Assembly: GCA_025363655.1 (NCBI GenBank)
Contig: JANYDK010000084.1
Location: forward strand, 1-64,000
Reading direction: 5' to 3'
DNA length: 64,000 nucleotides
Source of the DNA: Deltaproteobacteria bacterium
GTDB taxonomy: Bacteria; Myxococcota_A; Polyangia; Polyangiales; JADJMO01
Shown here: positions 39,010-49,556 of the stretch, in pieces
Numbering within the stretch: the stretch's first letter is position 1
Layout of the letters: the number at the start of each line of letters is the position of its first letter
Made by a program: the position numbers and the translations under genes
The notes under the pieces: model-generated
The model's input: the letters and a program-made list of their open reading frames with translations, nothing else
What the model was told of the DNA's origin: nothing
Database searches by the model: none

Positions 39010-40575
39010 CTACTTGCCCTCGAGCTTCTCCAGCACCGGGTTGAGATATCCCGGCGCCTTCTCGACGATGCCGGCGAAGCCTTTTCCACCGGTGCGTGAG
39101 CGCTTCACGTCGGCGAAGGCGCCCTCTTCGATGGCGTTCCAGATGCTCCGTCCGACGACGTCCTCGAGCTGCGCGTGCGCCTCGGCGAGCACCAGTTGCG
39201 CGCGCTGCTCGATGCGGCCACCGGGCTTGAAGGAGATCTCCTCGCCGAGGTGACGCGCCGCCGTGAAGACGTAGCGGGTCGCTTTGAGCGAGAGATAGCG
39301 ATCCATCAAGAGAGGATTGTGCACCGCCTCGGAGAACATCCCGAGCAGCTGAATCGATTGGTTGGTGGTGATGCCGACGAGGTTGAACATCGCGTCGTGG
39401 ACGTGCGCCTGGAAGATGTCGCCGGTCTTGTGCTTGGTCGGCGGCATCCACTTGATCGGATGGCGCGAGAAAATCTGCCGAACCATCTGCGCCTGGGCCA
39501 GCTCCATCAAGAAGCTGTCTTCGATCCAGGGGTTGATTTCGTAGGCGTGGCCGAGGCCGAGTTGTTCGTCTTTGAGGCCGGCGCGATGGGCGAAGGCTTC
39601 GTTGATGAACTGCGACGAGAGGACGGTGTGCGCCTTCTCGACCGCGTCGGCGGTGGTGAGGTAGTTGTCCTCGCCGGTGTTGATGACGATGCCCGAGCGG
39701 GCGACGAATCGACGCGAGACGTATTGGTCGATGAACGTGCGACACATGTTGATGTCGCGGAAGAGGATTCCGTACATCGCGTCGTTGAGGAGCATGTCGA
39801 GCCGCTCGACCGCCGCCATCCAGGCGATTTCCGCCATGCAGAGGCCCGAGCTGTAGTTCGTCTGCTGCACGTAGCGTTGGTGACGATGGCTCGCTTCGTC
39901 GAGCGCGCGACGGACGATGGCGAAGTTCTCCTGCGTCGCGAAGGTGCCGCCGAAGCCCTCGGTGGTGGCGCCCTCGGGGACGTAGTCGAGGAGGGACTGG
40001 GCGGTCGCGCGGATGACGGCGACGACGTCGGCCCCGGCGTGCGCAGCGGCCTTCGCCTGCACCGCGTCGTCGTAGATGTTGCCGGTGGCGACGATCACGT
40101 ATTTGTGCGGGACGTCGTTCGGCGGGGGAAAACGTGCCCTCAGGGCCTCGCGTTCATCGCGTGCGCGATCGATGCGATCGAGGGCTGCATCGGTCGCGGC
40201 CGCGAGGGCCTTGCGTGCGGAGGTGATGACGTCGGACGAGATCGCCGCCTTCGGATCGACCTGATCGAGCTCGGGCCCGTAGGCGAGTCGTTCGGCGGCG
40301 TCTTGCAGGCTGCCCCCGTGCTCGACGACCGAGCGACCGAGGGCGAACGACGCGCCCATCGGCAATTGTCCGGAGACGCGCAAGCGCTCGACCAGCGCGT
40401 TGACCAAGGGCACGCCTTGATCGTCGGTGCCGATGACGCCGAGGGCGCGGACCATGACGCGCTCGACGCCGACGGTGGTGTGACGATCGACGTACGTCTG
40501 CACGTCGCCTGCGACTTGCGCGGCGAGCTCTCGGCAACGAGCGACGAGCTTCTCGTCGACGGGGACCTGGGCCAT
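39010..40575 (-). CDS. kamD: lysine 5,6-aminomutase alpha subunit
   Basis: A 521-residue protein matching the large subunit of lysine 5,6-aminomutase, the adenosylcobalamin and PLP enzyme that moves the terminal amino group of D-lysine or beta-lysine from carbon 6 to 5. It contributes most of the TIM-barrel that holds PLP and substrate; recognisable stretches are GADVVAVIRATAQSLLDYVP, EGATTEGFGGTFATQENFAI, VQQTNYSSGLCMAEIAWMAA and NTGEDNYLTTADAVEKAHTV. Length fits (family about 516). The beta subunit gene kamE is not adjacent as in clostridia but at 47139-47900 on the other strand. No kamA (2,3-aminomutase) or later steps of lysine fermentation are in the window. Confidence 0.93.
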   Translation of the reverse strand: MAQVPVDEKLVARCRELAAQVAGDVQTYVDRHTTVGVERVMVRALGVIGTDDQGVPLVNALVERLRVSGQLPMGASFALGRSVVEHGGSLQDAAERLAYGPELDQVDPKAAISSDVITSARKALAAATDAALDRIDRARDEREALRARFPPPNDVPHKYVIVATGNIYDDAVQAKAAAHAGADVVAVIRATAQSLLDYVPEGATTEGFGGTFATQENFAIVRRALDEASHRHQRYVQQTNYSSGLCMAEIAWMAAVERLDMLLNDAMYGILFRDINMCRTFIDQYVSRRFVARSGIVINTGEDNYLTTADAVEKAHTVLSSQFINEAFAHRAGLKDEQLGLGHAYEINPWIEDSFLMELAQAQMVRQIFSRHPIKWMPPTKHKTGDIFQAHVHDAMFNLVGITTNQSIQLLGMFSEAVHNPLLMDRYLSLKATRYVFTAARHLGEEISFKPGGRIEQRAQLVLAEAHAQLEDVVGRSIWNAIEEGAFADVKRSRTGGKGFAGIVEKAPGYLNPVLEKLEGK

Positions 40576-40683
40576 GCAGGGACTTCTAGTCGCGCGGCTT
40601 CCGGGCTGGCTAGCCCTCTCGCCGATCGCCTGCGCCGCCTACGGTCCTGACGCGCCGCGTTTGCCGCTCTCGTTGGGATTTCA

Positions 40684-41952
40684 ATGATACAACGCGTCCC
40701 GATGGACGCCGCCGCCGACGAGAAAGCCGAGAAAGCCAGCACCCTGCTTCGCGCGCCGCACCCGTTCGTCTGGACCATCCTCTACATGCCCTTCGGAGCG
40801 CTCAGCGGCTTCGTCGGCGTCGCCCTCACTTTTCTTGCGACGCAGAACGGCCTCTCCATCGGCGAAGGCGCGCTCCTCAACGGCGCGAACTTGCTCACGG
40901 CCTGGCTCAAGTGGCTGTGGGCGCCGCTCGTCGACGTCACGCTCTCGCCGCGCAAGTGGTACGTCATCGCGACCTCGGTCACCGCGCTCGGCGTCCTCAC
41001 GATGTCGGCGGTGCCGCTCGGTCCCTCGACGCTGGTGGTGTTGCTGGTGGTCATCGCCATCACCAGCCTGATCAATTCGATCGTCGGCATGTCGGTCGAA
41101 TCGCTCATCGCCGGTTCGACGCCACCCGAACAAATCGGCCGCGTCAGCGCGTGGTTTCAAGCGGGAAATCTCGGGGGAGCAGGCCTCGGTGGCGGGCTCG
41201 GTCTCTATCTCCTGAAGAAGCTCCCGAAGCCGTGGATGTCGGGTGCGATCATGGCGACCCTCTTCATGCTCTGCTGCTTCGCGCTCTCCGCCACGCCGAA
41301 GGTCGCGGCGCACGTCAAGCACGGCAGCGCCTTCGCCGCGGTCAAACACGTCGCCAAAGATCTGTGGGTGATGCTCAAGACCAAGGGGGGTCTCCTCTCG
41401 GCAATCCTTTGCGTGCTCCCGGTCGGCACCGGCGCCGCACAGGGCACGCTCTCGCAGGCCGAGGTCGCCGCGTTTTGGGGGGCAGGCGCCGAGCATGTCG
41501 AGCTGATGCAGGGGCTCGTCTCCGGCCTCGTCACCACCGTCGGCTGCTTCGCCGGCGGCTACCTCTGCGAGCGCTTTCACCCGCGCACGACCTACGCCGG
41601 CGTCGGCATCGCCCTCGCCGCCATCGCCGTCGCAATGGGCGTCTGTCCGGCGACGGTGAAGATGTACATCCTCTGGTGCTTCATCTACGCGTTCGGCGTC
41701 GGCCTCGCCTACGCGGCATTCACCGCGATCGTCCTCGAGGCGATGGGTAAGGGCTCGGCGGCGACGAAGTACAACCTCTTCGCGTCGCTCTCCAACTTCC
41801 CGATCTGGTGGCTCGGCCTTCTCCTCGGCTTCGCCGCAGGCAAGTGGGGCGCGCGCAAGATGCTCTTCACCGAGGCCGCCCTCGGCGTGCTCGGAGTGAT
41901 CATCTTCTCGATCTCGACGAGGGTCGTGAAGCGGTCCAAGCTAGCCGCTTGA
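40684..41952 (+). CDS. MFS/PAT family transporter (AmpG-like)
   Basis: A 422-residue inner-membrane protein with about twelve helices. The N-terminus YMPFGALSGFVGVALTFLAT and the loop WLWAPLVDVTLSPRKWYVIA match the peptide/acetyl-CoA/drug transporter (PAT) branch of the major facilitator superfamily that includes AmpG. VGMSVESLIAGSTPPEQIGR is the equivalent of the second half of the first six-helix bundle. The substrate is unknown. An alternative ATG is at 40702. It is divergent from kamD; a role in lysine or beta-lysine uptake would be pure guess. Confidence 0.78.
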   Translation: MIQRVPMDAAADEKAEKASTLLRAPHPFVWTILYMPFGALSGFVGVALTFLATQNGLSIGEGALLNGANLLTAWLKWLWAPLVDVTLSPRKWYVIATSVTALGVLTMSAVPLGPSTLVVLLVVIAITSLINSIVGMSVESLIAGSTPPEQIGRVSAWFQAGNLGGAGLGGGLGLYLLKKLPKPWMSGAIMATLFMLCCFALSATPKVAAHVKHGSAFAAVKHVAKDLWVMLKTKGGLLSAILCVLPVGTGAAQGTLSQAEVAAFWGAGAEHVELMQGLVSGLVTTVGCFAGGYLCERFHPRTTYAGVGIALAAIAVAMGVCPATVKMYILWCFIYAFGVGLAYAAFTAIVLEAMGKGSAATKYNLFASLSNFPIWWLGLLLGFAAGKWGARKMLFTEAALGVLGVIIFSISTRVVKRSKLAA

Positions 41953-41954
41953 AC

Positions 41955-42413
41955 ATGCGACCTTTCTTCTCCCGCACTTCCGCGTTCGTGCTCATTTTCT
42001 CGATCGTTTCGTCGCTCGGGGCCTGCGGTGGCTCGTCCGACGAGACGTCGAGCACCGACACCGGAGGCGCCACGTCCGACGTCGGCGAGCTCCCGAAGGA
42101 CGCGGCGACCGACTCGTCGAGTGACGTTTCGAGTGACGTCTCGAGTGACGTCTCGACCGATGTTCCGAGTGACGTGTCGAGCGACGTCGTCGTCGATGCC
42201 GCGAGCGACGCCGCGACCGATGCTGCGAAAGACGCTCCCGATGTCGCCGACACCGCTGACGCACCGGCGTGTCCCACGCTCAAGCCGACGCGGCTCTCGA
42301 AGTGCGACACGCTCGATCAGGTCTGCATCTACGCGTGCGGCAGCGTCCTGCGATGTACCGCGAAGGGATGGGACAACGACTTCACCGTCGACGGTGGGCC
42401 GCCCTGTCCTTGA
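41955..42413 (+). CDS. lipoprotein with Ser-Asp-Val repeat linker
   Basis: A 152-residue lipoprotein: signal FVLIFSIVSSLGAC with lipobox LGAC at Cys24, then an acidic linker containing eight or so SSDV/STDV/ASDA units (about residues 55-94), then a short C-terminal domain of about 50 residues with five Cys (CDTLDQVCIYACGSVLRCTA). The start is 3 nt after the transporter stop, so the two are cotranscribed. The C-terminal Cys domain resembles those of other myxobacterial lipoproteins; role unknown. Confidence 0.78.
   Translation: MRPFFSRTSAFVLIFSIVSSLGACGGSSDETSSTDTGGATSDVGELPKDAATDSSSDVSSDVSSDVSTDVPSDVSSDVVVDAASDAATDAAKDAPDVADTADAPACPTLKPTRLSKCDTLDQVCIYACGSVLRCTAKGWDNDFTVDGGPPCP
42117..42236 (+). 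repeat. 12-bp in-frame repeats encoding SSDV units
   Basis: GACGTCTCGAGT-type units repeat five or six times and then decay into GCGAGCGACGCC-type units, encoding the acidic linker of the lipoprotein. Confidence 0.75.
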
Positions 42414-42501
42414 GCGTGGGGCAAGAACCGCTTTTTCCCCCGAGCCGAGCCCCGGCGCAACCTGGTAGCCTCGCTTGCGAACCATTTCGAGGGAGGAACA
42501 C

Positions 42502-43845
42502 ATGAGCGCATATCGAGCCCCCACGAGCGTCTTTGCCGCCGCCGATCGTTGGCTGCCTTGCGACAACTGCGGCCTCGGAATCCAGACGCCGGTCGCCGGC
42601 GGGACCACGCAGTGCACGCGTTGCCAAGCGCCGTTCGTCGCCTACGCGAGGCCGAACACGGCGATGCCGAAGTCGGCGGCGACCGACGAGATGGCGCGAC
42701 GAGCGCGGCTGCGTACGCAAGATGGCCGTCCGCTCTTGCCGCCGCCGGGCATCGAGCAGCTCGTGCAAGGAGGCCTGCAGCCGCACCGGATGCAGGAGGC
42801 GCGCATGATCTGGAGCGCGACGCGGAAGTCGCTCGTGACCAATGCGTCGGACGTCGCCGCCGCCGAGCGCCTGCTCTTCCTCACCATCATCATGCGCAAC
42901 ACGATGCTCGACAATCCGACGGACGAGCCGTCGGTGCGGGCGCTCATCGAAGGTGCGCTCGAGGTCTTCTTTCTTCCGCGTCACAAGCAGTCGATGCTCG
43001 GCTACCTCGCGCGCGGCGCCGCCAAGGTCGGCGACATGGACAGCGCCGAGGCCTGGATCGCGCAGTGCGATCCGTTCTCCGAAGATCTGCTCGCCGACAG
43101 CGCGTATCGCATCACGCGCTCCTTCATCGACACCGGCAAGGGCAACTTCGCCAACGTGCTCCAGGTGCTCGGAGGCAACGAGGCCGACGTGCCCATCGAC
43201 GACTCGATGGATCCGCTCGCCGCGGTGCTCCGCGCCAACGCCTGGGAGAAGACGAACAACCTCCAGGCCGCGCAGATGGTGCTGACGCAGTACATGGCGA
43301 GGCACGGCAACGCCTCCACCGTTCAGTCGATCACCTCGAGCATGCCGGCGCAGTGGCAGGTGTGCGCGCAGTCGGCGGGCTCGGCGCAGCAACAGGTTCG
43401 GCAAGTCGTAGCGCAGCGCGCGGCGTCTTCCGGCGGCGGCTCGATGATCGGGTGGATCTTCCTCATCGCCGGCTTCGCGCCGGTCTTGATCATCGGGATG
43501 CTCTACCTGACGACGCCGAAGTTCCCGATCGAGACGACGTTCTTCGTCCTCATCTTTCCCATCGTCTTCGGTGCCGTCGGCATCACTTTCATCCGCTCCG
43601 CTGCGCGCAAGAAAGAGATCGCGCAGAACGGCCTTCGCGGACGCGGTCGCATCGTCGGCATCTCGCCGACGGGCACGCGCATCAACGGCGTTCCGCTGAT
43701 GAAGATCGACGTCGAGATCCACGTCGACAACCATCCCCCGCGGATGGCGAGCACGAAGCGTCTCGGCTACCAGCAGATCGCGCCGGGCTCCGAGGTGCAA
43801 ATCATCTGGAGCCCGAAATACCCGAACGAAATCGTCTTCGAGTAG
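42502..43845 (+). CDS. membrane protein with N-terminal zinc ribbon
   Basis: A 447-residue protein. Residues 15-45 form a zinc ribbon (PCDNCGLGIQ, TQCTRCQAPF). Residues about 70-300 are helical and TPR-like. Two membrane helices follow (MIGWIFLIAGFAPVLIIGML and TTFFVLIFPIVFGAVGITFI), then a cytoplasmic C-terminal beta domain (RGRGRIVGISPTGTRINGVP) resembling DUF3592/OB-like folds. AGGGAGGA precedes the ATG at 42502. The zinc ribbon plus TPR-like helices suggest protein binding at the inner membrane; function unknown. It converges with the alkyl-DHAP synthase gene, 12 nt apart. Confidence 0.75.
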   Translation: MSAYRAPTSVFAAADRWLPCDNCGLGIQTPVAGGTTQCTRCQAPFVAYARPNTAMPKSAATDEMARRARLRTQDGRPLLPPPGIEQLVQGGLQPHRMQEARMIWSATRKSLVTNASDVAAAERLLFLTIIMRNTMLDNPTDEPSVRALIEGALEVFFLPRHKQSMLGYLARGAAKVGDMDSAEAWIAQCDPFSEDLLADSAYRITRSFIDTGKGNFANVLQVLGGNEADVPIDDSMDPLAAVLRANAWEKTNNLQAAQMVLTQYMARHGNASTVQSITSSMPAQWQVCAQSAGSAQQQVRQVVAQRAASSGGGSMIGWIFLIAGFAPVLIIGMLYLTTPKFPIETTFFVLIFPIVFGAVGITFIRSAARKKEIAQNGLRGRGRIVGISPTGTRINGVPLMKIDVEIHVDNHPPRMASTKRLGYQQIAPGSEVQIIWSPKYPNEIVFE

Positions 43846-43857
43846 GCCGAGGGCCCG

Positions 43858-45528
43858 TCACTCGATGAGCACGCCCGGGTTCATGATCGAGGCCGGGTCG
43901 ACCTCGTTTTTGGCGGCGCGGAGCACTCGCGCGAAGGTGTCGGGGCGCTCGCGCTCGTACCACGGCCGGTGCAGACGTCCGACCGCGTGATGATGGGTGA
44001 TGGTGGCGCCGCATCGCATGAGCGCGTCGGAGGCGGCGCGCTTGATCGCCCACCAGTGCTCGAGCTGCATCCCCGCGCGGCTCGGCGCGATGAACGTGTA
44101 GTAGGGCGCCGGCCCGTCGGGATAGACGTGGGTGAAGCGGCAGCTGAGGCGTCCGCCGCCGCATTGCTCCTTCATCGCCTCGGTCACCGCGCGGTGCACT
44201 TCGGCGTGGAGCTTGGGAAACGCGTCCCAGGTGCAGGCGGTCTCGAAGGTGTCGACGACCGCGCCGAGGCTCACGAGCACGCTTTGTAGGTACGGCGCTT
44301 CCAGGAAGGCCGCCTTCCACGTCGAGGCGGCGCCGGCGCCTTCGGTCTTGGCGCCGTCGTCCTTCTTCACGACCCCGCGCGGGACGACGCCACCGTGGCT
44401 CGCTGCGATGGCGACGGCGCGATCGATCCACGCGTCACATGCGTGATCCGCGGACTCGAAGCCGAGGATGAGGACGTGCGATCCCTCTTGATTTTCAGGG
44501 CCTGTGACGAAGTTGAGGGCCGCCTCGCGCGCGTCGAGGAGACGGCAGTTGGTCGGATGGAGACCGGCTTGGGCGATGGCGCGTGTGGCATCGACGGCGC
44601 GCGCGTAGGAAATCGCCTCGTCGTTCGCACCTCCTTGTACGCGCCCGCCGAAGTGCACGGATGCGCTCGCGCGATAGCGAGGCCGCTGTTGCACGCGCAT
44701 CCACGCCTCGGTGATGACGCCGAAGATGCCCTCGGAGCCGAGCACCAGACGATCGGGCGCGGGGCCTGCGCCGGAAGCGGGGAGACGTCGCGACTCCCAG
44801 ATGCCAGTCGGCGTCACCATGCGCATCGATTCCACCAGATCGTCGATGTGGGTGTAGAGCGTCGCGTAGTGGCCGCCAGCGCGCGTCGCGAGCCAGCCAC
44901 CGAGCGTCGAGAACTCGAACGACTGGGGGAAGTGACGAAGCGTGAGCCCGTGCTCGGCGAGCTGCGCCTCGAGCTGCGGACCTTTGGCGCCGGCCTGGAT
45001 GCGCGCGGCGCGGGAGGTGCGATCGACCTCGAGCACGCGATCGAGCCGGGTCATGTCGAGAGAGACCGTGCCGTGGTAGCGCCCGCCGGAAGCGCCAAAA
45101 TCAGCCTCCACACCGCCGCAGACGCTGGTGCCACCGCCATAGGGGACGACGGCGATCTTGGTCGCGGCCGCCCATTGCAAGAGCAGGGCGACGTCGTCTT
45201 CGTCGCGTGGATGGGCCACCAGATCGGGCGCGGGAGAGAAGTCGCCGGAGAAGCCGCGCACGAGATCGCGGTAGCTGCGACCGTAGGTGTGACGAATGCG
45301 CTGCTCGCGATCGTTCGTGCAGAACGCTCCCAGCGCTTCGGGAACGGACACTCTCGGAGTCGGCACCTTCGCGCTCTCGAGGGTCGGTGGCGCGTGCGGC
45401 ACGAGGCCATCGAAGCCGAGGAGGGCGGCGACTTGTACGGCGATTCCTCGGCGCGCGTCGTCGTCGGGAAACTTGTCGGCCCAGCCCCATCCCCAGAAGC
45501 TCAACGCGCGTTCGCCGGTCTTCGCCAT
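43858..45528 (-). CDS. alkyl-dihydroxyacetonephosphate synthase-like FAD enzyme
   Basis: A 556-residue flavoprotein of the VAO family that matches alkylglycerone-phosphate synthase, which replaces the acyl chain of acyl-DHAP by a fatty alcohol and so begins ether-lipid synthesis. The N-terminus LSFWGWGWADKF fits the family. FAD-binding segments are VVPYGGGTSVCGGV and GSEGIFGVITEAWMRV; the active site triple His occurs in THHHAVGRLHRPWY and a Tyr in THVYPDGPAPYYTF. Myxobacteria are known to make ether lipids with such an enzyme. The ATG at 45528 is fixed by the homology start and by a TAGGTT hexamer 7 nt upstream. A glycolate-oxidase-like role is less likely. Confidence 0.87.
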   Translation of the reverse strand: MAKTGERALSFWGWGWADKFPDDDARRGIAVQVAALLGFDGLVPHAPPTLESAKVPTPRVSVPEALGAFCTNDREQRIRHTYGRSYRDLVRGFSGDFSPAPDLVAHPRDEDDVALLLQWAAATKIAVVPYGGGTSVCGGVEADFGASGGRYHGTVSLDMTRLDRVLEVDRTSRAARIQAGAKGPQLEAQLAEHGLTLRHFPQSFEFSTLGGWLATRAGGHYATLYTHIDDLVESMRMVTPTGIWESRRLPASGAGPAPDRLVLGSEGIFGVITEAWMRVQQRPRYRASASVHFGGRVQGGANDEAISYARAVDATRAIAQAGLHPTNCRLLDAREAALNFVTGPENQEGSHVLILGFESADHACDAWIDRAVAIAASHGGVVPRGVVKKDDGAKTEGAGAASTWKAAFLEAPYLQSVLVSLGAVVDTFETACTWDAFPKLHAEVHRAVTEAMKEQCGGGRLSCRFTHVYPDGPAPYYTFIAPSRAGMQLEHWWAIKRAASDALMRCGATITHHHAVGRLHRPWYERERPDTFARVLRAAKNEVDPASIMNPGVLIE

Positions 45529-45535
45529 GTCGTGC

Positions 45536-45541
45536 AACCTA
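45536..45541 (-). promoter_or_regulatory. TAGGTT, possible -10 element of alkyl-DHAP synthase gene
   Basis: On the minus strand TAGGTT is followed by 7 nt and the ATG at 45528, predicting a leaderless transcript. An AT-rich patch with GTATTCGACTCGAATAC, a perfect inverted repeat with GTATTCGA / TCGAATAC arms around one base, lies just upstream at 45550-45566 and could be an operator. Confidence 0.42.
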
Positions 45542-45549
45542 GCACTGCG

Positions 45550-45566
45550 TGTATTCGACTCGAATA
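45550..45566. promoter_or_regulatory. GTATTCGA-C-TCGAATAC inverted repeat, possible operator
   Basis: A 17-bp perfect inverted repeat between the divergent alkyl-DHAP synthase and lipoprotein genes, at about -9 to -25 relative to the synthase -10 hexamer. Its position across the -35 region suits a regulator binding site. Confidence 0.45.
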
Positions 45567-45621
45567 CGCTTTTCACGCCACATCGTTGGCGTGAGACGTC
45601 GGCGAGCGCGATCCTCGAGAG

Positions 45622-46236
45622 ATGACTTTCACCGCGCGATCGCACCACCTCGTCCTCGGCGCATTCTCCCTCGCGCTCTCTACGGGACTCTTCGCGTGCG
45701 GCGGCACGACCACGCCCAGCGACGACGGTACGGACTCGGCGCTGGATGCCTCGGATGCCGACAATCTCGATGGCGTCAGTGATGGCGGCATCGATGGAGA
45801 CGATGCGAGCGACGGCGCGAATGACGGGGCTCCGAGCGATGGCACCGTCGGCGCCGACGTCATCACCGATGGACCGAGCGATGGACCGAGCGATGCGCGC
45901 CCCGTCTGCAGCGCCGAACCGACCAAGGTGCGGTGTGACGATTGTTGTCAAAAAGAGCACAAGGAAGGCTTCGCGACGCTGACCACCGCGCTCGTCGGGT
46001 GCGCCTGCACCGACTCGATCTGCAAGACGGTCTGCGCCTCGACGGGATGCGCCACCCCGCCGAGCACGCCCGACTCGGCGTGCAAAGCCTGCTTCAACGA
46101 AGCAGCGAAGGCCGGGGGCGGCTCGGATGCGGGTGGCGTCGCCGGCAAGTGCAACGGCCCGGTCACGACCGCGTGCAAAGGAGATCCCAAGTGCGTCGCC
46201 TACGTCGCGTGCGCTGGGTCGTGTCCGGGCGGGTGA
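45622..46236 (+). CDS. lipoprotein with acidic Asp/Gly linker and Cys-rich domain
   Basis: A 204-residue lipoprotein: signal SHHLVLGAFSLALSTGLFAC, an Asp/Gly/Ser linker (about residues 28-95, ending DGPSDGPSDARP) and a Cys-rich domain of about 105 residues with 14 Cys (VRCDDCCQKEHKEG, GCACTDSICKTVCASTGC, CKACFNEAAKAG). This domain type with a closing KCVAYVACAGSC is frequent in myxobacterial lipoproteins, where it may be surface exposed. It is divergent from the alkyl-DHAP synthase gene and 36 nt upstream of the sirtuin gene. Confidence 0.78.
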   Translation: MTFTARSHHLVLGAFSLALSTGLFACGGTTTPSDDGTDSALDASDADNLDGVSDGGIDGDDASDGANDGAPSDGTVGADVITDGPSDGPSDARPVCSAEPTKVRCDDCCQKEHKEGFATLTTALVGCACTDSICKTVCASTGCATPPSTPDSACKACFNEAAKAGGGSDAGGVAGKCNGPVTTACKGDPKCVAYVACAGSCPGG

Positions 46237-46259
46237 TGCGCCCGACGTGGTCGCGGTGA

Positions 46260-46265
46260 TACCTT
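46260..46265 (+). promoter_or_regulatory. TACCTT, possible -10 element of sirtuin gene
   Basis: TACCTT ends 7 nt before the ATG at 46273 and overlaps the alternative TTG codon at 46264, which argues for the ATG as a leaderless start. Confidence 0.4.
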
Positions 46266-46272
46266 GACGTTC

Positions 46273-47106
46273 ATGTCGCTCGAGGCCGACGTCGCGCGCG
46301 CGGTGAGCGTGATTCGCGAGGCCGACGCGCTCCTCGTCACCGCCGGGGCCGGCATCGGCGTCGACTCCGGATTGCCTGATTTTCGCGGCGACGAAGGTTT
46401 CTGGAACGCGTATCCACCGTTCCGCGAGCTCGGTCTCTCCTTCGTCGATCTGGCGAACCCGACCTGGTTCGAGCGCGATCCGGCGCGCGCTTGGGGCTTC
46501 TACGGACATCGCCTCGAGCTGTATCGACGCACGAAGCCACACGACGGGTTCGCGCTCTTGCAGGCGCTCGCCGCGCGCATGTCGCGTGGTCACTTCGTCT
46601 TCACGAGCAACGTCGACGGCGCCTTCCAACGCGCGGGCTTCGATGAAGCGCGCATCGTCGAATGCCACGGCGCGCTCGACTACGTCCAGTGCCTCGGCGA
46701 CTGCGGCGTGGGCATCCTCCGCGCCGACGAGCTTTCGATCTTCGTGGAGGTCGATCCCACGACCTTTCGCGCGCAAGAGCCGCTCCCCCGATGTCCGAGA
46801 TGCCGCGCGCTCTTTCGACCGAACGTGCTCATGTTCGGCGACGGCGCCTGGGACGGGGCGCGCAGCGAAGCGCAGGAAGCACGTTTTTCCGCGTTTCTCG
46901 CGTCGGTGCTCCCCGATCCGGCAAGTCTCGTCGTGATCGAATGCGGCGCTGGCACCGCCATCCCGACGGTGCGCCGTCTCGGCGATCGTCTGGCCGCGCG
47001 CGGGGCGACGCTGGTGCGCATCAACGTGCGTGAGCCCGAGGTTCCGGTGGGCTCCCTCGGCCTCCCGCTCGGTGCGCTCGAGGCTTTGACGCGACTGCTG
47101 GGTTGA
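46273..47106 (+). CDS. SIR2-family NAD-dependent protein deacylase
   Basis: A 277-residue sirtuin that removes acyl groups from protein lysines using NAD. Motifs: TAGAGIGVDSGLPDFRG (NAD loop), TSNVDGAF with Asn113 and Asp115 (the usual Gln is Ser here), catalytic His132 in VECHGAL, and a zinc site of Cys140, Cys144, Cys174 and Cys177 (QCLGDC, RCPRC) with an atypical x3 spacing in the first pair. The segment INVREPEVP replaces the usual IN.E. It lies just upstream of kamE on the same strand (32 nt), so a lysine-related grouping is possible but may be accidental. The Gln-to-Ser change could affect activity or specificity. Confidence 0.88.
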   Translation: MSLEADVARAVSVIREADALLVTAGAGIGVDSGLPDFRGDEGFWNAYPPFRELGLSFVDLANPTWFERDPARAWGFYGHRLELYRRTKPHDGFALLQALAARMSRGHFVFTSNVDGAFQRAGFDEARIVECHGALDYVQCLGDCGVGILRADELSIFVEVDPTTFRAQEPLPRCPRCRALFRPNVLMFGDGAWDGARSEAQEARFSAFLASVLPDPASLVVIECGAGTAIPTVRRLGDRLAARGATLVRINVREPEVPVGSLGLPLGALEALTRLLG

Positions 47107-47138
47107 CACGGTTTCGGCGCGTGGAGAATGTGCGCGCG

Positions 47139-47900
47139 ATGCACCCCACCGAGCCGAAGTTGCTCCGCGCGTATGGCGACCGCGAGGGCGATGGCATGGT
47201 CCAGATGTCGTTCACCCTCCAGCTCCCCAAGGGCGCCCGCGCGCGCGAGGCAGCCAAGCGCTTCGCCGAGTCGCACGGCCTGAAAGAGCCGCTCGTCTCG
47301 ACGATGGAAGAGTGCGCCGAGGGCTATTGCTACTTCGTCGTCTACGGCCACTCGCAGCACAGCGTCGACGTCACCAACCTCGAGGTCCCCGACGTCGAGG
47401 TGCCGCGGCTCGAGATCAAAGAGGTCGATCACCGCATCCTCACGCGCCTCGGTCGCAAGCTCGTCGTCGTCGGCGCGTGCACCGGCAGTGACGCGCACAC
47501 CGTCGGCATCGACGCCATCCTCAACATGAAGGGGTACGCCGGCGAGAAGGGCCTCGAGGCGTACAAAGGCTTCGACGCCTACAACATGGGCGCGCAGGTC
47601 GAGAACGACCAGCTCATCGAGCGCGCGCTCGCCCTCTCGGCCGACGCCATCTTGGTCAGCCAGGTGATCACCCAGCGCAACTGTCACAAAGAGAACGGCC
47701 GCGCGCTCGTCGAGCTCTTGGAAAAACGCGGCCTCCGCAAGCAATTCGTCTTGCTGTTCGGCGGACCACGCGTCGATCACAAGCTCGCGCTCGATCTCGG
47801 CTTCGACGCTGGATTCGGCCCCGGAACGAGGCCCGGCGACGTGGCGAGCTACCTCGTCCACCGCCTCTGCGGCGAAGGCGAAGAGCACGCAAAGAACTGA
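47139..47900 (+). CDS. kamE: lysine 5,6-aminomutase beta subunit
   Basis: A 253-residue cobalamin-binding subunit of lysine 5,6-aminomutase. The C-terminal Rossmann domain carries the base-off/His-on motif Asp-x-His-x2-Gly (GSDAHTVG) with lower cobalt ligand His120, and Lys131 lies eleven residues later, exactly where the PLP-binding Lys144 stands relative to His133 in the clostridial enzyme. An N-terminal dimerisation domain (residues 1-95) precedes. LLFGGPRVDHKLALDLGFDA is the end of the B12 fold. An in-frame TTG at 47103 overlapping the sirtuin stop is an alternative start. The partner kamD is at 39010-40575 on the opposite strand. Confidence 0.93.
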   Translation: MHPTEPKLLRAYGDREGDGMVQMSFTLQLPKGARAREAAKRFAESHGLKEPLVSTMEECAEGYCYFVVYGHSQHSVDVTNLEVPDVEVPRLEIKEVDHRILTRLGRKLVVVGACTGSDAHTVGIDAILNMKGYAGEKGLEAYKGFDAYNMGAQVENDQLIERALALSADAILVSQVITQRNCHKENGRALVELLEKRGLRKQFVLLFGGPRVDHKLALDLGFDAGFGPGTRPGDVASYLVHRLCGEGEEHAKN

Positions 47901-47920: not shown

Positions 47921-47946
47921 CATCCCCGGCCATCGCCGGGGCCCCT
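47921..47946. repeat. GC-rich hairpin repeat, family B copy 2
   Basis: CATCCCCGGC ... GCCGGGGCCCCT forms a perfect 7-bp stem (CCCCGGC / GCCGGGG) with a CATC loop. It fills the gap between convergent kamE and fadL-like genes and could terminate transcription from both sides. It matches the element at 9017-9042. Confidence 0.6.
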
Positions 47947-49556
47947 CAGAGCCGGACCGTCACGCCGATGGAGCCCATGTTGTAGCCGCCGGTGACCTTG
48001 CCGTTGTTGACCGGGTTGCAGGTGCGGCCCTTCTGACCGGCCGGGCTCTGCGGACACACGCCGGGATCCCACGTCTCTTGCGCGACGAGGCCATAGCCGC
48101 CGCCGACGCCGTTGTTGTCGAGACCGGAGAGGAAGATGTGCCCGTAGCCGACGGAGAGATCGACCTTCGGTGAGATGCGGTACGTGCCGCCGAGGTAGAG
48201 GCCGACCATCGCCGAGGGGAGGAAGTCGATGGCGAGGAACTTCGCGTCCTGTCCGACCGTTTGGTAGAACGCGCCCGCGCGCACCGCGAGCTGATCGGGG
48301 AGCACCGGGACCTCGCCGCCGAGGCGGACGCCGACGGTGTCTTTCCAGTTGTGCGGCGACGAGGCGTCGGCGGGAACGAAGCCTGCGCTCGACGTCAATT
48401 GGCCGAGCGCGACGGGCTGACCAGGCGGGAAGAGCAGCGTGATTTGATCGACCGTCTTGTTGTGCGCGTAGGTGACGTCGAGCTCGATGTCGAAGGCGTC
48501 GCTGCTGAGGAGGTCGCGACGCTTGCCCGACGTGACCACTTTTCCGTCTTTGCGTGCGGGGTGCAGACGGAAGCCGATGCGCGCTTCCCACGGCGCGGGG
48601 AGGCGGAATTCTCCGAGGTTCGCGGGGGTCGAGACCGACGAGTTCGCCGGCTTCTTGCCGTCGCCGTAGTAGGGGCCGGTGATGGTGACGTCGCCGCTGG
48701 TGGCGTGGATGTCGGCGCTCCACTTGAACATCGCGCCGATGTCGAACGCCTCGTGCGGAGTGATGAGCGCACCGAGGACGAAGCCGGGGACGAAGAGCTT
48801 CTTCACGCTGAGGTCGGCGCGGAGGTCGGCGTTGGGACCTTCGGCGGCGTCGCTGGGGACGCTGTTGGTGGCGTGCGAAATGTTGGAGAACTTGAGGAAC
48901 GCCATCGTCCACATGAAGCCGGCGCCGAAGCGCACACCCTTGGCGACCTCGTATCCGGCCGAGAGCGTCGGCGAGACGACGACGCCGTTCTGCTCGAGGA
49001 GCATGTAGCGCTGCGGTGCGGGCGCGAGATCGCCGTTCGGCAACGTCACTTGATCGGGCCACTTCGCCTTGCCGGCGGAGCTCGGGGTGACGAGCGCGAA
49101 GGCGATGCCGAGCTTCTCGTTGACGGCGTAATTGAAGGCCAGCTGGGGGACGATGTTGACGTCGCCGACGCCGTTGTTCTTGCAGACCTCGGGATAGGCC
49201 TGGCCGCCGTAGGTGCTGCCTTGGAAGCGCGTTCCGCCGTTGGTGGCGTCGCTCGAATAGGTGCCGGAGCGCTGGAAGCAGAGCTTCTGCCAGGTGAGGT
49301 TGGTGTTGACGAGGAAGGCCGTCGGCTGACCGGCGAGCCCCGCGGGGTTGAGCGAGGCGGCCATGGGATTGTCGGCCTTCGCCGTCCACGCGCCGGCGCG
49401 GCCCATCACCTCGGTGCCATTTTCCGGAATCTCGAAGCCGTTGGCGCTTGCGGATGAAGTAGAGAGGAGGACGAGCGCCCCCGCTGCCAAGATCGCGAAC
49501 GAACCGCGAGCGACGAGAGTCGCACGGCAATCTTCGGCATGACGGAAACGACGCAT
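47946..49556 (-). CDS. outer-membrane transport protein, OMPP1/FadL/TodX family
   Basis: A 536-residue FadL-type beta-barrel. The signal peptide (FAILAAGALVLLSTSSASA) ends before NGFEIPENGTEVMGRAGAWT, and ADNPMAASLNPAGLAG is the family hallmark. The hatch-like N-terminus and the C-terminal strand ending SIGVTVRL fit an uptake channel for hydrophobic substrates. Four Cys in the mature part (KLCFQRSG, PEVCKNNG, DPGVCPQSP, GRTCNPVN) are unusual for the family and probably pair. AAGGAG precedes the ATG at 49556. It is convergent with kamE. Confidence 0.9.
   Translation of the reverse strand: MRRFRHAEDCRATLVARGSFAILAAGALVLLSTSSASANGFEIPENGTEVMGRAGAWTAKADNPMAASLNPAGLAGQPTAFLVNTNLTWQKLCFQRSGTYSSDATNGGTRFQGSTYGGQAYPEVCKNNGVGDVNIVPQLAFNYAVNEKLGIAFALVTPSSAGKAKWPDQVTLPNGDLAPAPQRYMLLEQNGVVVSPTLSAGYEVAKGVRFGAGFMWTMAFLKFSNISHATNSVPSDAAEGPNADLRADLSVKKLFVPGFVLGALITPHEAFDIGAMFKWSADIHATSGDVTITGPYYGDGKKPANSSVSTPANLGEFRLPAPWEARIGFRLHPARKDGKVVTSGKRRDLLSSDAFDIELDVTYAHNKTVDQITLLFPPGQPVALGQLTSSAGFVPADASSPHNWKDTVGVRLGGEVPVLPDQLAVRAGAFYQTVGQDAKFLAIDFLPSAMVGLYLGGTYRISPKVDLSVGYGHIFLSGLDNNGVGGGYGLVAQETWDPGVCPQSPAGQKGRTCNPVNNGKVTGGYNMGSIGVTVRL

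What the first reader, a model, noticed from the sequence alone, without database searches (positions are those of the whole stretch)
39010..47900. Lysine 5,6-aminomutase subunits split onto opposite strands 6.5 kb apart
kamD and kamE products must assemble one-to-one, and in clostridia their genes adjoin. Here kamD reads left at 39010-40575 and kamE reads right at 47139-47900, with transporter, lipoprotein, alkyl-DHAP synthase and sirtuin genes between. The catalytic residues are intact (His120 cobalt ligand and Lys131 at the +11 spacing). No kamA, kdd, kce or kal genes are nearby, so the enzyme may serve a purpose other than lysine fermentation, for instance making a diamino acid precursor.
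Basis: partly seen in the sequence, partly recalled or inferred. Interest (0 to 1): 0.6.

Follow-up and report, generated by a model that had tools for sequence, protein, structure and literature searches.

The report
Split genes of a lysine-degrading enzyme
The two halves of a vitamin B12-dependent lysine-breakdown enzyme are encoded apart and on opposite strands in this myxobacterium, but the remaining pathway genes are scattered elsewhere in the same genome and relatives have broken up the pair several times, so this looks like an ordinary enzyme whose gene pair has come apart.

Summary
kamD (39010-40575, -) and kamE (47139-47900, +) encode both subunits of lysine 5,6-aminomutase, with cofactor-binding residues intact. 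Each is the only copy in the genome. The interpretation (a purpose other than lysine breakdown) is not supported: the genome carries 3,5-diaminohexanoate dehydrogenase (kdd), a fused kal-kce, two KamA-like genes and a cobalamin adenosyltransferase, all on other contigs. Across 282 genomes of the phylum kamD occurs in 70, kdd in 69, both in 67. Splitting is not unique: of 68 genomes with both subunits, 45 have them adjacent, 4 on one contig but 6.6 kb to 2.8 Mb apart, and 19 on different contigs. A KamD tree needs 6-8 changes between adjacent and split. Sorangium shows one route: a type I restriction-modification island with a transposase separates the pair by 14.6 kb in one strain, while another keeps it 0.3 kb apart. 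A close relative of the window has the same divergent order at 43 kb, which argues against an assembly error. Most likely this is a dispersed but complete (beta-)lysine degradation pathway. KamA identity and activity are inferred, not shown. Modest interest, mainly as a natural experiment on subunit genes losing their operon.

The parts
39010..40575 (-). [quoted passage not shown]
   Evidence: PF09043 765 bits; NF052384 725 over cut-off 600; aligned to 1XRS_A, 530 bits; only copy in the genome
47139..47900 (+). [quoted passage not shown] His120 and Lys131
   Evidence: PF16554 + PF02310; NF052385 349 over cut-off 280; 1XRS_B 249 bits; only copy
40684..41952 (+). MFS transporter, divergent from kamD; a 30% identical MFS gene lies divergent from kamD in L064 too
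   Evidence: PF07690; tblastn
42502..43845 (+). unassigned protein with a CxxC-type N terminus (by eye), between the subunit genes
   Evidence: no Pfam match; start seen
43858..45528 (-).
   Evidence: PF01565 and PF02913
45622..46236 (+). lipoprotein-like protein, between the subunit genes
   Evidence: translation with lipobox-like signal seen by eye; no NCBIfam match
46264..47106 (+). Sir2-family protein, 32 bp upstream of kamE and on its strand
   Evidence: PF02146; no homologue in the other loci fetched by then
47946..49556 (-). FadL/TodX-type outer membrane protein, right neighbour of kamE; homologue near kamE in L065
   Evidence: PF03349; 53% identity in L065
49782..52286 (+). penicillin-amidase family protein; its homologue follows kamE in two relatives
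   Evidence: PF01804; 60% identity in L197, 56% in L174

Best explanation
kamD and kamE encode an ordinary adenosylcobalamin- and PLP-dependent lysine 5,6-aminomutase working in the (beta-)lysine degradation pathway known from lysine fermenters: a KamA-like enzyme makes beta-lysine, KamDE moves its terminal amino group to give 3,5-diaminohexanoate, Kdd oxidises it, and a fused Kal-Kce cleaves the product and removes ammonia, yielding acyl-CoA units. Gene identities and their co-occurrence are shown. The flow through the pathway, the identity of KamA and enzyme activity are inferred. The subunit genes were ancestrally adjacent; in the window's lineage a rearrangement (most simply inversion of the segment holding kamD and its MFS neighbour, plus insertions) separated them. 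The two proteins would then be made from separate transcripts and assemble after translation, with no need for an operon.
For: Both subunits pass their equivalog cut-offs. PLP contacts and active-site residues listed in PMC3958899 (passages) map by the 1XRS alignment (counted by hand) as Arg184->189, Ser189->194, Tyr236->241, Ser238->243, Tyr263->268, Arg268->273, Asp298->303, Asn299->304; KamE has His120 and Lys131. The D-x-H-x10-K pattern is in 120 of 120 KamE stretches of 180 aa or more extracted from the session's loci (duplicates included). Own genome: kdd C107, kal-kce fusion C75, KamA-like genes C150, cobalamin adenosyltransferase C58, 203 bits. Co-occurrence over 282 genomes: kamD 70, kdd 69, both 67; kal 66, both with kamD 61. 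Two or more KamA-family matches in 60 of 70 kamD genomes against 67 of 212 others (counts read by hand). Myxococcaceae loci such as L116 carry kdd, kamD, kamE, kal and kce together. Ancestral adjacency: 45 of 68. Rearrangement: L064 has MFS(-) kamD(+) two genes kamE(+); the window has kamD(-) MFS(+) ... kamE(+).
Against: Neither KamA-like protein reaches the lysine 2,3-aminomutase equivalog cut-off (394 and 254 against 525). The kal-kce fusion misses the bifunctional-model cut-off (642 against 725) and the kce cut-off (355 against 382), though it passes kal (175 against 160). kal is missing from 9 of 70 kamD genomes, so the last step varies or the drafts are incomplete. The pathway genes are unlinked in this genome, so their joint use rests on co-occurrence. 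The inversion model rests on one shared neighbour at 30% identity. No expression or activity data exist.
Confidence: 0.87

Rival explanations
1. One reading: the aminomutase serves a purpose other than lysine breakdown, such as making a diamino acid building block.
For: No pathway genes lie beside kamD or kamE in this genome; the closest KamA matches are below the equivalog cut-off.
Against: kdd and kal-kce are present in the genome and kdd tracks kamD in 67 of 70 kamD genomes, including lineages in which the genes are dispersed.
Confidence: 0.06
2. The split order is an assembly or binning error.
For: The genome is a 150-contig draft, and no reads were available.
Against: One contig without N and with even G+C (0.63-0.70) from 36 to 52 kb. 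A separately named relative (L063, contig of 96.8 kb) has the same divergent order at 43 kb. kamE's right neighbours recur in L065 (FadL) and in L174 and L197 (penicillin amidase). kamD and kamE are 2.2-2.8 Mb apart in three one-contig genomes and 14.6 kb apart in a complete Sorangium chromosome.
Confidence: 0.03
3. Window KamE has become part of a Sir2-kamE operon in which deacylation is functionally tied to lysine metabolism.
For: Sir2 ends 32 bp before kamE on the same strand.
Against: No Sir2 homologue was found in the other loci fetched by then; relatives keep kamE next to other genes without it.
Confidence: 0.04

Closest known systems
Lysine 5,6-aminomutase (KamDE), PDB 1XRS, 8T0V, 9Q1A
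   Same: Full-length alignment of both subunits, same domains, same PLP and cobalamin residues
   Different: Genes 6.6 kb apart and divergent, where Fusobacterium nucleatum has consecutive numbers FN1863/FN1862 (gene numbers from a passage of PMC3149608; which is which is recalled)
Lysine fermentation pathway (kamA, kamD, kamE, kdd, kce, kal)
   Same: kdd and kal over NCBIfam cut-offs in the same genome; kamD-kdd co-occurrence
   Different: At least four unlinked contigs (C49, C75, C107, C150); kal and kce fused; kamA not certain
D-ornithine 4,5-aminomutase (OraE)
   Same: Related barrel and B12 domains (118 and 116 bits to NF040743)
   Different: OraE is one fused chain; both window proteins are far below its cut-off of 800 bits
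kamD-kamE split in Sorangium cellulosum So ceGT47
   Same: Subunit genes separated although relatives keep them adjacent
   Different: There the cause is an inserted island (type I restriction-modification genes and an IS481-like integrase) and both genes stay on one strand

Membership tests
[quoted passage not shown]
   NF052384 725 against 600
[quoted passage not shown]
   NF052385 349 against 280
Lysine 5,6-aminomutase | PLP lysine and cobalt-ligand histidine in KamE | tested here: met
   Lys131 and His120, aligned to 1XRS_B Lys144 and His133
Lysine 5,6-aminomutase | PLP-contact residues in KamD | tested here: met
   eight side chains conserved against 1XRS_A; Gly187, a main-chain contact, is Ala, as in 8T0V
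Lysine 5,6-aminomutase | isomerises D-lysine or L-beta-lysine | not testable with these tools
   needs an enzyme assay
Lysine degradation via 3,5-diaminohexanoate | kdd in the genome | tested here: met
   NF052381 222 against 200
Lysine degradation via 3,5-diaminohexanoate | kal in the genome | tested here: met
   NF052388 175 against 160
Lysine degradation via 3,5-diaminohexanoate | kce in the genome | tested here: inconclusive
   NF052387 355 against 382, as the C-terminal part of the kal fusion
Lysine degradation via 3,5-diaminohexanoate | lysine 2,3-aminomutase (kamA) | tested here: inconclusive
   two KamA-family proteins, TIGR03820 394 and 254 against 525
D-ornithine 4,5-aminomutase | OraE single-chain architecture and score | tested here: not met
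   118 and 116 bits against 800

The most novel reading that the evidence does not exclude
Myxococcota have repeatedly, some 6-8 times on the KamD tree, dissolved the operon of an obligate two-subunit B12 radical enzyme while keeping the enzyme and its pathway. This would be a natural experiment showing that KamD and KamE need neither co-transcription nor co-translational assembly, with trans-acting regulation taking over.
Probability: 0.5. Interest if true: 0.42.

Novelty: new member of a known kind. Interest (0 to 1): 0.3.

Why it matters
It shows that absence of neighbouring pathway genes is weak evidence for a new function in these genomes: the pathway is present but scattered. It also gives a phylum-wide set with adjacent, near and far subunit genes for testing whether linkage affects assembly of a heteromeric enzyme. 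That is of interest because operon gene order is reported to match complex assembly and interacting subunits tend to be encoded by adjacent genes (PMC4742563, abstract and one section read), while larger genomes have less conserved operons (PMC3845653, abstract read). A treatment of this pathway or its gene order in Myxococcota was not seen in the listings of paper searches.

Tried and rejected
A shared regulatory motif upstream of the dispersed own-genome units (kamD, sir2-kamE, kal-kce, kamA, kdd) was sought with a simple 14-mer comparison: 20 of 30 shuffles did as well, so nothing was found, at low power. KamA-family presence alone is uninformative: 266 of 282 genomes have a match. A second kamDE pair elsewhere was looked for and not found. 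Rows dropped before counts: three OraE-only genomes (G016, G138, G210) left out of the kamD and kamE sets; the 20.7-bit kdd match of G089 left out; the weak kal matches under 40 bits left out, while two just under the cut-off (G061 155.7, G076 153.4) were kept. In the tree, 3 of 111 rows with truncated kamE (L081, L113, L140) were given no state; the count is 8 changes, 7 after also dropping four genomes in which no kamE over the cut-off was found (L084, L111, L114, L131) and L015, and 6 after also dropping the two rows with two genes between the subunits. The tree is a quick one with long branches meeting (L128 with L027). G237 and G217 count as 'different contigs' although their kamD is cut by a contig end. 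kce as a separate family and BKACE proteins elsewhere in the genome were not searched. No structure was predicted because solved homologues align over nearly the full length.

Full report
Observation. kamD (39010-40575, -) and kamE (47139-47900, +) are real, full length and over their equivalog cut-offs. They are divergent with 6.6 kb and five genes between them: MFS transporter, unassigned protein, FAD-linked oxidase, lipoprotein-like protein and Sir2 protein. Each is the only copy in a 9.04 Mb, 150-contig, 96% complete genome.

Catalytic state. Against 1XRS and the residue list in passages of PMC3958899, KamE keeps the cobalt-ligand histidine and the PLP lysine, and KamD keeps eight PLP-contact or active-site side chains. 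The mapping of KamD residues was counted by hand from the printed alignment.

Pathway. Whole-genome searches find kdd on C107 (224 bits; 222 over cut-off 200), kal on C75 as the N-terminal part of a 410-aa protein whose C-terminal part is Kce-like, two KamA-like genes 50 kb apart on C150 and a cobalamin adenosyltransferase on C58. kal and kdd pass their cut-offs. Kce and the fusion model fall short, and neither KamA-like protein passes the AblA cut-off, so the KamA and Kce steps are less certain. The KamA-like protein at C150:10451 is 43-46% identical to the KamA-like proteins found next to kdd in G206 and G008 (L160, L159).

Co-occurrence. In the same 282 genomes of the phylum, kamD (OraE-only genomes set aside) is in 70, kdd in 69, both in 67; kal in 66, both with kamD in 61. 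The five genomes with one of kamD and kdd but not the other are drafts given as 81-89% complete. These genomes are related, so the Fisher p-values overstate the evidence, but the two genes also co-occur in families where they are unlinked (for example G007: kamD at 3.96 Mb, kdd at 0.44 Mb of one contig).

Gene order. Of 68 genomes with both subunits, 45 have them adjacent (36-752 bp between family matches), 4 have them on one contig but separated (window 6.6 kb; G007 2.18 Mb; G086 2.57 Mb; G150 2.77 Mb) and 19 on different contigs. All 18 genomes of family f21 with both are split. Of 80 named loci, kamE is found downstream of kamD on the same strand in the fetched stretch in 65, two of them with two genes between; 15 have none. 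In 11 of those 15 genomes a kamE over the cut-off lies elsewhere, in one only a weak match, in three none. On a tree of 111 KamD proteins the adjacent/split label needs 8 changes, or 6-7 with doubtful rows removed.

How the pair comes apart. In Sorangium, So0157-2 keeps kamD and kamE 0.33 kb apart and So ceGT47 has them 14.6 kb apart on the same strand, with collinear flanks on both sides. The extra stretch holds type I restriction-modification genes, a RhuM-family gene and an IS481-like integrase gene. In the window's own clade, L064 and L065 have two genes between the subunits. The genome of L063 has kamD (-) and kamE (+) 43.4 kb apart in the window's orientation. G239, of the same family, has them on different contigs. 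L064 has an MFS gene divergent from kamD at 30% identity, as in the window, so inversion of kamD with its MFS neighbour is the simplest step; this is inference. kamE's right-hand neighbours (FadL, penicillin amidase) recur in relatives, which argues against misassembly.

Mechanism. Shown: genes, intact residues, single copies, co-occurrence, recurrent splitting. Inferred: KamDE acts on beta-lysine made by a KamA-like enzyme, Kdd and Kal-Kce finish the route, and the subunits are made from separate transcripts and assemble afterwards. The order of reactions is the published lysine fermentation route (PMC3149608 passages, and general knowledge). No shared upstream motif was seen.

Verdict. An ordinary enzyme in a known pathway with dispersed genes. 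The recurrence of the split is the useful part.

Noticed in passing
L171:5581-6813 (own genome C75): kal and kce appear fused into one 410-aa protein; kal matches over or near the cut-off in other genomes of the window's class (families f1, f2, f8, f9, apart from G061) also lie in frames of 400 aa or more, while f21 genomes have short kal frames.
   Followed up: partly
L196:5224-16178: In Sorangium cellulosum So ceGT47 a type I restriction-modification island with an IS481-like integrase gene sits between kamD and kamE.
   Followed up: partly
G016, G138, G210: Three genomes of the phylum have only a single-chain OraE-like aminomutase (837-846 aa frames) and no kdd match; G035 and G180 have both kinds.
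   Followed up: no
G254, G206, G227: kamD and kdd present but no kal match; a beta-transaminase may replace kal, as reported for Cloacamonas (PMC3149608, passages).
   Followed up: no
L129: A record named Comamonas sp. KCTC 72670 carries a kamD that groups with Myxococcus in the tree, so the record is probably misnamed or contaminated.
   Followed up: no
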